Positions 311-5,107 of a stretch of 5,107 bases of DNA are shown here, in pieces (the first letter of the stretch is position 1; each line of letters begins with the position of its first letter). Below the pieces are notes generated by a model. That model was not told the DNA's origin and did no database searches. It saw only the letters and a program-made list of their open reading frames with translations. The translations under genes and the position numbers were made by a program. Source of the stretch: Planctomycetota bacterium (GTDB lineage: Bacteria; Planctomycetota; UBA11346); contig JAHEDF010000327.1 of the NCBI GenBank assembly GCA_024641365.1, positions 1 through 5,107 on the forward strand. Reading direction: 5' to 3'.

Positions 311-2590
311 ATGAAACATATTTGCTTACTCTTCTGCTTTTTTGGTGTTCTTGGCATTCTGTGTGGGGCATCGGAAGAAGAATTCATTGTCGCTGCAAAA
401 GAAAAACATGGCGATCACGGCGCTGAAGCGGCTCGCTTTTTGTATGCCAATATGCCGGATCAGGATCGCTCGGAGTTAGCATTAGCATTCCTGATTGAAA
501 ACCTTGATTTGGCATTGCGGTCACGCTCAGAATTTCCGTGGGGCAAGCAAATTCCTGACGATATTTTTCTCAATCATGTGTTACCTTATGCTGTATTTGA
601 TGAAAAAAGAGATCCATGGCGTGCCCAGTTTTTTGTACTCGCTAAAAAAATTGTAGCCGGATGCACAACGGCGACAGAAGCAACCCAGGCCCTAAATCGC
701 GAAATATTTAACCTAATTAATGTGCATTATAATACAGGACGGAAAATTCCGAATCAAAGTGCACAACAATCAATGGCATTGGGGAAAGCGACCTGCACTG
801 GTTTAAGTATTATTTTGGTAAACGCCTGCCGTTCAGTGGGAATTCCTGCACGCGCCGTTGGCACGCCATTGTGGGCGAATGATCGCGGTAACCATACCTG
901 GGTAGAAATTTGGGATGGTGAATGGAAATTTACTGGTGCCGATGAATATGATAAAAATGGGCTCAACCGTGGGTGGTTTGTTAATGATGCGCGTTTAGCT
1001 CATAACAGAGCACCGCAATATGCGATTTACGCCACCACCTGGAAACGTGACGGTTTGAGTTTTCCTTTGGTGTGGGATCCAGACAGCAAACAAGTGAGCG
1101 CTATAAATGTAACCGACCGTTATGCCGATCCACAGGCCGCTCAACAAGCAACCGTGCAATTAGGCATTCGCTTATTTGATAAATCAGGCGGCGAACGCTT
1201 ACCGGCACATATTGAAATAATTAATACGCAAGGCCAGATGTGCGGGAAAGTGCAAACAAAATCTGGCACCAGTGATCTTAATGACATGCCACGTTTTGAG
1301 GTGCCGGAGAAATTCCAAGGTACCTTACGCGTTCGCTACGGTGATGAAGTTCGGCTCCATACGTTTGGTCCGTTAGATGGCGCGCATCCAACGCTCGATT
1401 TATTGTGGAGTGAGCTCTCGTCAGAAACGACAGCTAATACAAATTCGTCTGCAATTAGTGCAATTAAAGCATGGCTTGATCTTCCCGTAGATAAGCGGCC
1501 GGCAGACGCGCCAGCCTTACAAATGCCACTCACAAAAGATGAAGCGCAAACAGTTAAGGACATGTTGCTTCACGATCGAAGGCAGTCTTTGTTAAAGCAA
1601 CGGCAAGCAGAAGTCACGGAAAAAGAAATCCTTATTGGCGATAAAAAATTACGCTGGTTAGAAAAGACCTTTGGAAATGCCAAAGAAGGCGAACGTAGTT
1701 TGTGGATCTCTATGCATGGTGGTGGCGGCGCGCCAACTGCCGTTAATGATCAACAATGGCAAAACCAAATTAAATTATATAGCCCTGAAGAAGGCATTTA
1801 CATCGCTCCGCGCGCGCCGGTTGATGCGTGGAATATGTGGCACATCAAAGAACTTGATGGTTTATTTGATCGTCTCATTGAGGACTTCATTGCCGTACGT
1901 GGTGTTAATCCCAATAAAATATATTTGATGGGTTATTCAGCGGGAGGTGATGGTGTTTGGAAATTAGCACCGCGCATGGCTGATCGATTTGCCGCAGCTT
2001 CCATGATGGCAGGTCATCCAAATGGAGCGCCATTATTACCACTGCGCAATTTGCCGTTTGGTATTTTTATGGGTGGCAACGATGCCGCCTATAAACGCAA
2101 TGAAATTGCGACTGAACGTGCAGCTGAAATGAAAAAGCTAGCCGAAGCAGATCCTGGCAGTTATGTGCATATAGCACGTATTTATCCCGGACTACCACAT
2201 TGGATGAATCGAAAAGATGCTGAATCCGTACCTTGGATGGCGCAATATACGCGCCAACCATGGCCAAAGAAAATAATTTGGATTCAGGATAACTGCATGC
2301 ATCAGCGTTTTTATTGGTTGCAGATACCAGATATGAGTGCGGCAAAAGACGGACAAAAAATTACCGCTACGGTCAAGGATAATTCCATTACTTTGGAGGG
2401 CGATATGCCAAAGGAGTTATCATTAGCCTTATCAGATGAATTAATTAATTTAGAGGCGCCAATTGCGGTAACTGTTGCTGATCAACCACAGCAAACATTT
2501 ACCGTAACGCGTACTGCTGCCGCCATGGTGCGTAGTCTGAATGGGCGCCTTGGTGCTGCGATTGCAAGTGCGTGGATTGATCTAAAATAA
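311..2590 (+). CDS. Secreted transglutaminase-like / alpha-beta hydrolase (esterase) fusion protein
   Basis: This is a 759-residue exported two-enzyme protein. The ATG at 311 is chosen because it begins a clean signal peptide: MKH, a hydrophobic run to about residue 18, and likely cleavage after CGAS. Candidate starts at 278 (TTG), 287 and 296 only add a polar tail, and none has a visible Shine-Dalgarno. Residues about 120-250 form a transglutaminase-like core: Cys162 in ATCTGLS, His195 in GNHTWVEIW and Asp211 in TGADEYD, spaced as in the papain-like triad. About 285-360 looks like a beta-sandwich linker. Residues about 465-655 are an alpha/beta hydrolase of the PHB-depolymerase/LpqC-like esterase type: oxyanion loop HGGGG (469-473), nucleophile Ser543 in GYSAGGDG, Asp591 in GGNDAAY and His630 in LPHWM. 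A beta-rich tail follows. Both triads are complete. The family is one I recall from PVC bacteria. The substrate is unknown; peptide or amide cleavage plus ester hydrolysis is inferred. It converges on the metallopeptidase gene. Confidence 0.9.
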   Translation: MKHICLLFCFFGVLGILCGASEEEFIVAAKEKHGDHGAEAARFLYANMPDQDRSELALAFLIENLDLALRSRSEFPWGKQIPDDIFLNHVLPYAVFDEKRDPWRAQFFVLAKKIVAGCTTATEATQALNREIFNLINVHYNTGRKIPNQSAQQSMALGKATCTGLSIILVNACRSVGIPARAVGTPLWANDRGNHTWVEIWDGEWKFTGADEYDKNGLNRGWFVNDARLAHNRAPQYAIYATTWKRDGLSFPLVWDPDSKQVSAINVTDRYADPQAAQQATVQLGIRLFDKSGGERLPAHIEIINTQGQMCGKVQTKSGTSDLNDMPRFEVPEKFQGTLRVRYGDEVRLHTFGPLDGAHPTLDLLWSELSSETTANTNSSAISAIKAWLDLPVDKRPADAPALQMPLTKDEAQTVKDMLLHDRRQSLLKQRQAEVTEKEILIGDKKLRWLEKTFGNAKEGERSLWISMHGGGGAPTAVNDQQWQNQIKLYSPEEGIYIAPRAPVDAWNMWHIKELDGLFDRLIEDFIAVRGVNPNKIYLMGYSAGGDGVWKLAPRMADRFAAASMMAGHPNGAPLLPLRNLPFGIFMGGNDAAYKRNEIATERAAEMKKLAEADPGSYVHIARIYPGLPHWMNRKDAESVPWMAQYTRQPWPKKIIWIQDNCMHQRFYWLQIPDMSAAKDGQKITATVKDNSITLEGDMPKELSLALSDELINLEAPIAVTVADQPQQTFTVTRTAAAMVRSLNGRLGAAIASAWIDLK

Positions 2591-2597
2591 AGCGATC

Positions 2598-2617
2598 CAT
2601 ACACGCCTGTGTGTATG
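2598..2617. terminator. Possible terminator hairpin between convergent genes
   Basis: CATACAC (2598-2604) pairs perfectly with GTGTATG (2611-2617) around a 6-base loop, starting 8 bases after the first gene's stop codon. No T-tract follows on either strand, so a classical Rho-independent terminator is not shown. The position between two converging genes is what makes it plausible. Confidence 0.35.
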
Positions 2618-2648: not shown

Positions 2649-3239
2649 TCTTTCTAATTGTTTTAAGAACTTAGTTATTTCTGGATCGTACTCTGCAAGT
2701 TCCGCTCGATTGAACGGGAAAAAATCGTTTACGCCAAAATAAGCTTCGGCGGCTTCTGATAAATATTCTTTATGATCAGTTGAGCCATAATGTTTGACCA
2801 TGCGGCCGGAAATATGTTTTACTTTGCCATAGCGTTCCGATTTGAGTGCGCTCTCATAGAGTCCCTTGATCTCTTTATTATCAAAGTTCAACACTTGGTC
2901 ATGATAGGCATGAATTAATTCATGCAGCATAACCCATGGCTGGTGTTTGGTAACATGAACGAAGCTGCCGATATTACTTATTTCCACGCATTTTGCTTTG
3001 TTGGGACTAAACTTATGTTCGACTAACCACTCTTTACTCGGATGATATTCGGCGCCAGATTTTCCATCTTGTTTGATATCGACATAAATTTTCACTTTTT
3101 GCATATCTTTAATGACGTCATCTTTTAACACGCGCTTCATGCCAAATAATTGATTGCTCATGATGCGTTGGGCCATGGCCCAGTGTTCATCTTTCATGAC
3201 TTCAACATTAACCATGAACGTCCAGCCTTCGATGTCCAT
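2646..3239 (-). CDS. HExxH zinc metallopeptidase, catalytic part (signal peptide cut off by upstream stop)
   Basis: The 197-residue open frame holds a complete gluzincin-like metallopeptidase domain. It starts MDIEGWTFMVN, with a beta/alpha N-terminal half. The zinc-binding helix is HELIHAYHD (His106, Glu107, His110), and the likely third ligand is Glu162 in SEAAEAYFG, followed by NDFFPF (171-176). The spacing of HExxH and a downstream Glu-rich helix fits a zinc peptidase of a family seen in planctomycetes and relatives; substrate and biological role are unknown. The ATG at 3239 has only an AAGAG directly abutting it, which is poor spacing. The same frame continues upstream through one TAA (3243-3245) to a signal peptide and a strong ribosome binding site, so the ancestral gene is 3335-2646 (229 codons). 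As it stands, this part could be made only by re-initiation or readthrough, and by re-initiation it would lack the export signal. It converges on the gene at 311 and diverges from the sulfatase. Confidence 0.82.
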   Translation of the reverse strand: MDIEGWTFMVNVEVMKDEHWAMAQRIMSNQLFGMKRVLKDDVIKDMQKVKIYVDIKQDGKSGAEYHPSKEWLVEHKFSPNKAKCVEISNIGSFVHVTKHQPWVMLHELIHAYHDQVLNFDNKEIKGLYESALKSERYGKVKHISGRMVKHYGSTDHKEYLSEAAEAYFGVNDFFPFNRAELAEYDPEITKFLKQLER

Positions 3240-3242
3240 CTC

Positions 3243-3335
3243 TTAGAATGAACGATTAATGTGGTCATCTTTTACAATGGCTGATCCACCACTTCCCAAT
3301 AAGCAGAGGGCAAAAAGTGGTAAGAAATATTTCAT
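3243..3335 (-). pseudogene. Severed signal-peptide portion of the metallopeptidase gene
   Basis: ATG at 3335 opens a 30-codon frame starting MKYFLPLFALCLLGSGGSA, a textbook signal peptide (Lys2, hydrophobic core, small residues before a likely SxA cleavage), then IVKDDHINRSF and a TAA stop at 3243-3245. It is in the same frame as the metallopeptidase at 3239, with only one codon (GAG) between the stop and that ATG. It also owns the good Shine-Dalgarno. I therefore read it as the true 5' end of that gene, interrupted by one nonsense codon; AAA, CAA and GAA are each one substitution away. Alternatives are a sequencing error or stop readthrough. A free-standing 30-residue peptide gene is less likely. 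Confidence 0.75.
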
Positions 3336-3343
3336 GTCAGCGG

Positions 3344-3348
3344 TCCTT
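3344..3348 (-). promoter_or_regulatory. Shine-Dalgarno deciding the metallopeptidase start at 3335
   Basis: On the minus strand AAGGA lies 8 bases before the ATG at 3335, which is near-ideal spacing. By contrast the ATG at 3239 has no properly spaced site. This is the main reason to place the original gene start at 3335 rather than 3239. Confidence 0.75.
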
Positions 3349-3662: not shown

Positions 3663-5107
3663 ATGTTGTTTCGTCTATGTAACTTTCAAATGATTATCAT
3701 CACGTTGGCATTTGTTTGCAGTTGGGGTAATTATGCCACTGCAGCAGAGCGTTTACCAAATATCATTTTTATTCTAGCCGATGATTTAGGATATGGTGAA
3801 TTAGGATGTTATGGACAGCAAAAAATTAAGACGCCACATATTGATAAACTAGCCACCGGTGGCATGCGATTTACCCGTGCCTATTCTGGTAATGCGGTTT
3901 GTGCGCCGTCACGCTGCGTTCTGTTAACTGGTCGCCATCCTGGGCATGCGTATGTGCGTAATAACCGAGAAATTAAACCCGAAGGCCAAGAACCATTACC
4001 TGCCGGCACAGTAACCATTGGGACCATGCTACGTGACCGTGGCTATACGACCGGCGGATTTGGGAAATGGGGTCTTGGTGGTCCTGGCTCAAGTGGCGAT
4101 CCAATGAACCAAGGTTTTGACCGCTTTTTCGGCTATAACTGTCAACGCGTTGCCCATAGTTATTATCCCGCTTATTTATGGAGTAATCGCGAAAAATTCC
4201 CGCTGAATAATAATCCGCCTGTTCCTGGGCACGCACCTTTTCCAGCAGATGCTGATGCAAACAATGATGCCAGTTACGCTCAATTTAAAGGAACGGATTA
4301 CGCGCCAGCATTTATTCGTGATGAAGCGCTCAAATTTATTGATGCGAATAAAGATAAACCTTTCTTTCTTTATTATCCGACCGTTATTCCGCATTTAGCC
4401 TTACACGTACCGGATGCCGATTTGGAACAATACCATAAATTAAACTGGAACGACCCTCCATTCGCCGTGTCGAAAGGAAAAGGCTTGGGATATACTCCGC
4501 ATCGCACGCCGCGTGCTGCCTATGCGGCGATGATTAGTTATATGGATTCCGCCGTTGGTGCATTGGTTGCCCGACTCGAACAATATAATTTACGTAATGA
4601 CACGTTAATTATTTTCACCTCGGATAATGGCGCCACTCATTTAAATGCCGAAGTCGATGTTGAATTCTTTAATAGCGTCTCTGGATTACGTGGACTAAAG
4701 GGAGAGTTATATGAAGGGGGTGTTCGCGTACCTTTTATTGCTGAATGGCCCGGACGTATTGCCCCAGGAACAACCAGCGATCGCGTTATTGGTTTTGAAG
4801 ATGTGCTAGCTTCTGTCGCTGAATTAAGTGTCGCACCAGTTCCACAGAGTGATGGATTTTCATTTGTTCCGACCTTATTCGGTAAGCAGCAACCAGCACG
4901 GCCATTTCTGTATCGTGAATTTTCCTCGTACGGTAGCCAACAAGCTGTGTGGTTTGATGAATGGAAAGCGATTCGCTCAAAAATGAGCAAAGGCCCCATC
5001 GTCACGCAACTCTATAATTTAGCCACGGACCCGAACGAAAAAAACGACGTTGCCGCCATGCATCCTGCGGTGGTGAAACGTGCGGAAGCGTCGTTTTTTT
5101 CGTTCGG
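3663..5107 (+). CDS. Secreted type I (formylglycine) sulfatase, 3' end missing
   Basis: 481 complete codons run off the window without a stop. A signal peptide covers residues 1 to about 28 (hydrophobic MIIITLAFVCSW, then ATAAE). The sulfatase fold follows at once: NIIFILADDLGYG supplies metal ligands Asp40 and Asp41, and CAPSR gives Cys80, which is converted to the formylglycine nucleophile, with Arg84. Other expected residues are Lys135 in FGKWGLGG, His244 in VIPHLALH, Asp321/Asn322 in FTSDNGATH (calcium) and Lys346 in GLKGELYEGG. The histidine usually found two residues after Lys135 is glycine here. The enzyme would hydrolyse sulfate esters outside the cytoplasm, probably on sulfated polysaccharide; the exact substrate cannot be read. 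It needs a maturase (FGE or anSME) not in the window. Length up to LATDPNEKNDVAAMHP is near complete for the family. The last residues after RAEA (SFFSF) come from an inverted copy of upstream DNA and are probably not genuine. Confidence 0.93.
   Translation, partial: MLFRLCNFQMIIITLAFVCSWGNYATAAERLPNIIFILADDLGYGELGCYGQQKIKTPHIDKLATGGMRFTRAYSGNAVCAPSRCVLLTGRHPGHAYVRNNREIKPEGQEPLPAGTVTIGTMLRDRGYTTGGFGKWGLGGPGSSGDPMNQGFDRFFGYNCQRVAHSYYPAYLWSNREKFPLNNNPPVPGHAPFPADADANNDASYAQFKGTDYAPAFIRDEALKFIDANKDKPFFLYYPTVIPHLALHVPDADLEQYHKLNWNDPPFAVSKGKGLGYTPHRTPRAAYAAMISYMDSAVGALVARLEQYNLRNDTLIIFTSDNGATHLNAEVDVEFFNSVSGLRGLKGELYEGGVRVPFIAEWPGRIAPGTTSDRVIGFEDVLASVAELSVAPVPQSDGFSFVPTLFGKQQPARPFLYREFSSYGSQQAVWFDEWKAIRSKMSKGPIVTQLYNLATDPNEKNDVAAMHPAVVKRAEASFFSF
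5031..5107. repeat. Perfect 19-base inverted repeat ending exactly at the window edge
   Basis: Positions 5031-5049 (CCGAACG, seven A, CGACG) are the exact reverse complement of 5089-5107 (CGTCG, seven T, CGTTCGG), separated by 39 bases. Pairing stops inward at once (5050 versus 5088 mismatch) and outward at the window end. Both arms lie inside the sulfatase frame: the left arm encodes the family-typical DPNEKND and the right arm replaces the expected C-terminus. This looks like a fold-back or chimeric join at a contig end, not a natural terminator. Confidence 0.85.

What the first reader, a model, noticed from the sequence alone, without database searches (positions are those of the whole stretch)
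3240..3348. In-frame TAA splits a metallopeptidase from its signal peptide
A strong ribosome binding site (3348-3344) and a textbook signal peptide starting at 3335 are in the same frame as the HExxH domain, with a single TAA (3243-3245) between them. An ATG follows three bases after the stop. The catalytic half shows no decay (HELIH and SEAAEA intact). This is a very recent nonsense mutation, a sequencing error, stop readthrough, or stop-restart translation giving a cytoplasmic form. TAA also ends both this gene and the gene at 311, so general recoding of TAA is unlikely.
Basis: partly seen in the sequence, partly recalled or inferred. Interest (0 to 1): 0.7.

Follow-up and report, generated by a model that had tools for sequence, protein, structure and literature searches.

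The report
Secreted protease gene with premature stop
A gene for an ordinary, probably exported protein-cutting enzyme of an uncultured bacterium carries one stop signal between its export tag and its enzyme part; its relatives lack that stop, so this looks like a recent broken copy or a sequence error rather than a new mechanism.

Summary
On the minus strand a Shine-Dalgarno site and a 30-codon signal-peptide-like frame (ATG 3335) end at TAA 3245-3243; GAG, then ATG 3239 follow, in frame with a 197-residue HExxH domain. Relatives show two halves of one gene: the 17 nearest listed proteins (54-72% identical, 222-235 residues) run through the junction without a stop, as do 46 of 46 related DNA loci. 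The enzyme half shows no decay: 2 of 47 otherwise invariant columns differ, against 0-9 in relatives, and its branch is as long as its sisters'. It is predicted to fold alone (pLDDT 96.9), most like Pro-Pro endopeptidases. The stop is seen only on this 5.1-kb contig. A real recent nonsense allele is most likely; a consensus error cannot be excluded without reads. Restart at ATG 3239, 3 bases after the stop, is feasible and would give a cytoplasmic form. Readthrough has no support beyond conservation of both sides.

The parts
3344..3348 (-). Shine-Dalgarno AAGGA of the full gene, 8-base spacer to ATG 3335
3246..3335 (-). 30 sense codons: signal peptide plus linker, severed from the enzyme
   Evidence: similar to N-termini of relatives; hydropathy
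3243..3245 (-). in-frame TAA, codon 31; aligns to a variable column in relatives
3240..3242 (-). GAG codon between stop and ATG; this column is Val or Ile in 17 of 17 nearest proteins
   Evidence: Lys in L029 by eye; Glu in 17 of 99 remoter relatives
3237..3239 (-). possible restart ATG, 3 bases after the stop; internal Met in the 3 sister proteins P0002, P0003, P0006
2646..3239 (-). catalytic domain, 197 aa, predicted Pro-Pro endopeptidase/M34-type zincin fold
2910..2924 (-). HELIH zinc-binding motif, intact
   Evidence: H106, E107, H110 invariant in the 120-row alignment
2742..2759 (-). SEAAEA, carrying the invariant Glu162 that is probably the third zinc ligand (inferred, not tested)
3213..3215 (-). 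later in-frame ATG, the start of database entry P0001 (189 aa), preceded by GAAGG 3230-3226; a start here would lose the nearly invariant EGW

Best explanation
An ordinary gene for a secreted single-domain zinc metallopeptidase in an uncultured, probably Lentisphaeraceae-related bacterium carries a real, recent nonsense codon between its signal peptide and its enzyme domain. Shown: the two halves are one gene in relatives, the frame is kept, the enzyme half is not decayed, and the stop is found in none of the relatives whose sequence across the junction was available. Inferred: the exported enzyme is no longer made. Ribosomes that end at the TAA may restart at the ATG 3 bases on and make a little folded, unexported enzyme as a by-product, not as an evolved device.
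For: Relatives continuous across the junction: 17 of 17 nearest listed proteins and 46 of 46 DNA loci; no stop inside any of 28 matches in 25 of 387 genomes, of which 15 matches reach the junction column. Both halves in one frame without indel. Catalytic half under normal constraint: 2 of 47 invariant columns changed against 0 to 9 in relatives; end branch 0.26, against 0.14 plus 0.09 to 0.15 for its sister rows; codon score 0.10 in this frame, -0.07 and -0.19 in the two shifted frames, 0.16 to 0.17 for the two neighbouring genes from which the reference was made. The stop column is variable in relatives. The two neighbouring frames are undisturbed, one of them cut by the contig end.
Against: Reads are not held, so a consensus error is not excluded. 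No second copy of this organism is known: cluster P0001 has 2 member sequences on one contig of 5107 bases, and the next protein is 72% identical. The window's end branch (0.26) is above the median of end branches (0.15) and its mean similarity score is sixth lowest of 18, so slight relaxation is not excluded. The stop sits where a restart would spare the whole fold, which a random mutation would seldom do.
Confidence: 0.52

Rival explanations
1. The stop is an error in the consensus of a metagenome contig; the gene is intact in the organism.
For: Single contig, no independent near-identical copy listed; the rest of the gene looks functional.
Against: The frame is kept and no homopolymer run lies at the site, so the usual indel errors of long reads do not explain it; it would have to be a substitution error that survived into the consensus (general knowledge). 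The other two frames of the window are clean. The neighbouring GAG codon is also off the close-clade consensus, which a single-base error would not explain, although Lys occurs there in L029 and Glu in 17 of 99 remoter relatives.
Confidence: 0.27
2. Stop-restart: translation ends at TAA and restarts at ATG 3239, and the resulting cytoplasmic zincin is made in useful amount, whether or not selection has yet acted on it.
For: Stop-to-ATG gap of 3 bases; a gap of 2 bases lowered reinitiation by 5, 20 and 70% in three E. coli pairs (PMC10666635, passage). The product is predicted to be a complete fold. An in-frame ATG 0 or 3 bases on follows 18 of 228 codon positions, and only codons 31 and 32 of these lie in the linker (bounds 19-33 chosen by me). 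GAG, the one codon outside both products, is off the close-clade consensus. P0026 starts at the same residue.
Against: The ATG has little Shine-Dalgarno pairing (-1.7 kcal/mol, touching the ATG), less than the later ATG 3215 (-5.7) or ATG 3335 (-5.1). The Met is already present in the sister clade, so the start was not evolved for this. Both halves are still conserved, as after any recent event. Seen once. The coincidence was noticed after the fact.
Confidence: 0.14
3. Programmed readthrough or recoding of TAA, giving the full-length secreted enzyme.
For: Conservation on both sides of the stop.
Against: TAA ends this gene and the gene at 311-2590. No stop at this place in 17 of 17 nearest proteins or 46 of 46 loci. 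RNA fold around the stop is unremarkable (z -1.5, 15 of 200 shuffles at least as stable); no Rfam match at gathering scores. No A or T run at the stop for transcriptional frameshifting of the tssM kind (PMC4256274, search listing only; that such slippage uses runs is recalled).
Confidence: 0.03

Closest known systems
Pro-Pro endopeptidases (PPEP-1/Zmp1, PPEP-2, PPEP-3)
   Different: 21% identity or less to the PPEP rows shown; cleavage between prolines untested; signal peptide cut off by a stop in this copy.
Catalytic domain of the M34 / ATLF family (Pfam PF07737)
   Different: The window copy is a lone domain of 197 aa behind a signal peptide, with no second domain; the window protein itself has no PF07737 match.
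Peptidase_M90 (MtfA), Pfam PF06167
   Same: 98 of 120 members match at E 0.01 or better.
   Different: Weak (best 5.5e-7); no match for the window protein.
Nonsense-interrupted bacterial genes (recent pseudogenes)
   Same: One in-frame stop, rest intact, intact relatives.
   Different: Stop lies precisely between export signal and enzyme, one codon before an in-frame ATG.

Membership tests
recent nonsense pseudogene | intact homologues continuous through the site | tested here: met
   17 of 17 nearest listed proteins, 46 of 46 loci
recent nonsense pseudogene | stop present in the organism's DNA, not only in the consensus | not testable with these tools
   no reads; no genome held
recent nonsense pseudogene | little or no decay of the rest | tested here: met
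Pro-Pro endopeptidase | PPEP-like fold with HExxH | tested here: met
   (predicted model; Foldseek alone gave no match at E 0.001)
Pro-Pro endopeptidase | cleavage of Pro-Pro bonds | not tested
   needs an assay
Pro-Pro endopeptidase | sequence similarity to solved members | tested here: inconclusive
   no PDB sequence match at E 1, but only a single-sequence search was run
M34/ATLF Pfam family | window protein matches PF07737 | tested here: not met
   no PF07737 match for the window protein at E 1, although 102 of 120 in its alignment match
programmed stop readthrough | stop conserved among relatives | tested here: not met
   0 of 17 proteins, 0 of 46 loci
termination-reinitiation pair | stop and start within a few bases | tested here: met
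   3 bases between TAA and ATG
termination-reinitiation pair | downstream product made from the ATG | not testable with these tools
   needs a reporter or proteomics

The most novel reading that the evidence does not exclude
A small change turned an exported protease into a cytoplasmic one: the stop just before an ancestral internal Met makes ribosomes restart and make the complete enzyme domain without its export tag, and selection has kept it. P0026, annotated to start at the same residue in a remoter lineage, would be a parallel case.
Probability: 0.1. Interest if true: 0.5.

Novelty: new member of a known kind. Interest (0 to 1): 0.13.

Why it matters
As found, little: one interrupted copy of a widespread zincin family, seen on one contig. 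It is a clean example of how a single stop can separate export signal from enzyme. The family (829 proteins found, 3215; most of those listed carry no functional name; named loci are mainly planctomycete, armatimonadete and verrucomicrobial) has the fold of enzymes with very particular substrates, so its function is worth testing. If restart were real and selected it would show relocation of an enzyme by a minimal change.

Tried and rejected
General recoding of TAA: rejected, since TAA ends the window's one other complete gene and this gene itself; the genome could not be examined. Two separate genes with a chance signal peptide: rejected by similarity of both halves to single proteins. Frameshift: rejected, both sides are in one frame without gap. 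Viral context: two scans of viral contigs found no relative. RNA element at the stop: fold z -1.5, no Rfam match. The promoter/terminator scan gave no more than its shuffles. Two changed codons as proof of a multi-base event: weakened, because Lys sits at the second column in L029 and Glu in 17 of 99 remoter relatives. Dating by synonymous change: not attempted, as the nearest DNA held, L029, is 55% identical at protein level to P0002. Whole genomes: 25 of 387 in one phylum, 4 of 6 in one order and 5 of 197 in one class hold a relative, none closer than L029. Literature: searches listed no paper that I recognised as describing this gene; only listings were seen, except PMC10666635 (abstract and passages). 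The earlier script measured open frames before L029-L048 were put in the right orientation and is void for the reversed ones among those; one search replaced it. In one search the motif position of L045 was misplaced (an earlier HExxH was taken), but its frame is open far upstream either way. Family libraries gave only weak matches for the window protein (Peptidase_M13 E 0.011, Peptidase_M76 E 0.065, both below cut-off; NCBIfam none).

Full report
Observation. The minus strand carries AAGGA (3348-3344), ATG 3335, 30 sense codons that read as a signal peptide and linker, TAA 3245-3243, GAG, and ATG 3239 opening a 197-residue frame that ends at TAA 2646. The window is itself a public contig: the database entry P0001, 189 aa and starting at the later ATG 3215, stands for 2 member sequences on one contig of 5107 bases. 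No genome is held for it.

One gene in relatives. A protein search with the post-stop half found 829 proteins, 120 listed. The 17 nearest after the window's own (54-72% identical) are 222-235 residues long and carry an N-terminal part like the window's pre-stop frame, followed without a break by the enzyme. In 16 of the 17 that part holds a hydrophobic 12-residue stretch (mean hydropathy 1.5 or more); P0012, on a 994-base contig, is shorter. Of the 119 relatives in alignment A2, 108 have such a stretch. Of the other 15, 13 are, by eye, fused behind another domain with a shared motif, as is L024 among the 31. None of 28 matches in 25 of 387 phylum genomes has a stop inside, but only 15 of the 28 reach the junction column; the class search added none with a stop (5 of 197 genomes matched). 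The stop is therefore private to this contig as far as could be seen.

Against this. Of 238 proteins listed in two searches, 170 carry the E/D-G-W motif; two of these have under 18 residues before it: P0026 (44% identical, contig of 12,066 bases) begins at the residue equivalent to ATG 3239, and P0057 one residue before. Among the 68 without that motif, P0075, P0163 and P0180 begin after the junction, as does the window's own P0001. The DNA of these was not available, so they may be partial genes, start-calling errors or parallel cases.

The junction. Eight different residues occupy the column of the stop in 17 relatives, so no single ancestral codon can be inferred; the next column is Val (14) or Ile (3) in all 17, Lys in the genome homologue L029 (by eye), and varied, with Glu in 17 of 99, among remoter relatives. 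The window has Glu there. The Met of ATG 3239 is an internal Met in the three proteins of the sister clade, so the ATG is probably older than the stop.

State of the enzyme half. Left-one-out, the window departs at 2 of 47 columns invariant in the other 17; its relatives depart at 0 to 9 of 45 to 54. Its mean similarity score to the others is sixth lowest of 18. In a maximum-likelihood tree it groups with P0002, P0003 and P0006 (support 93/92, below the tool's star mark) with an end branch of 0.26, against 0.14 plus 0.09 to 0.15 for the sisters; the median end branch is 0.15. So there is no clear acceleration. Codon score is 0.10 in this frame and negative in the shifted ones. AlphaFold2 on the post-stop half alone gives pLDDT 96.9 and pTM 0.93, confident from the first ten residues on. 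The stop thus lies at the very edge of the predicted domain.

How it probably works. The most economical account is a fresh loss of the export signal by one stop in a gene that was under normal constraint until lately. A consensus error fits almost as well and only reads can tell. Restart is physically reasonable: in three E. coli pairs a gap of 2 bases lowered reinitiation by 5, 20 and 70% against native overlaps (PMC10666635, passage); here the gap is 3 bases. An in-frame ATG that close follows 18 of 228 codon positions, two of them in the linker as I bounded it. But this ATG has weaker Shine-Dalgarno pairing than ATG 3215 or ATG 3335, and the argument was made after seeing the case. Readthrough has no sign beyond the conservation of both sides.

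Verdict. Real observation, correct split-gene reading, ordinary explanation. Interest low.

Noticed in passing
window 311-2590: One protein joins a transglutaminase-like domain (PF01841, E 5.9e-15) to a C-terminal esterase-like part (weak, below-cut-off PHB-depolymerase and dienelactone-hydrolase matches).
   Followed up: no
window 2598-2617: Perfect 7-bp inverted repeat CATACAC/GTGTATG between the convergent stop codons at 2590 and 2646, possibly a shared terminator; read by eye.
   Followed up: no
L004, L005, L007-L009, L011-L013, L015, L017, L018, L022-L024: In 14 of 46 loci, by eye, the zincin is fused behind another domain ending in a shared motif (GHHEFGNAETYFLVGDALGKGM-like).
   Followed up: partly
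P0026 (212 aa, contig of 12,066 bases) and P0057 (213 aa): Remoter relatives whose annotated starts fall at or one residue before the equivalent of ATG 3239, without a signal peptide.
   Followed up: partly
L045: An extra HExxH seems to lie upstream of the matched zincin in the same 633-codon frame, perhaps a duplicated domain (searches compared, noticed when checking a misplaced motif).
   Followed up: no
window 3663-5105: Sulfatase (PF00884, E 8.8e-57) running off the contig, divergent from the protease gene.
   Followed up: no
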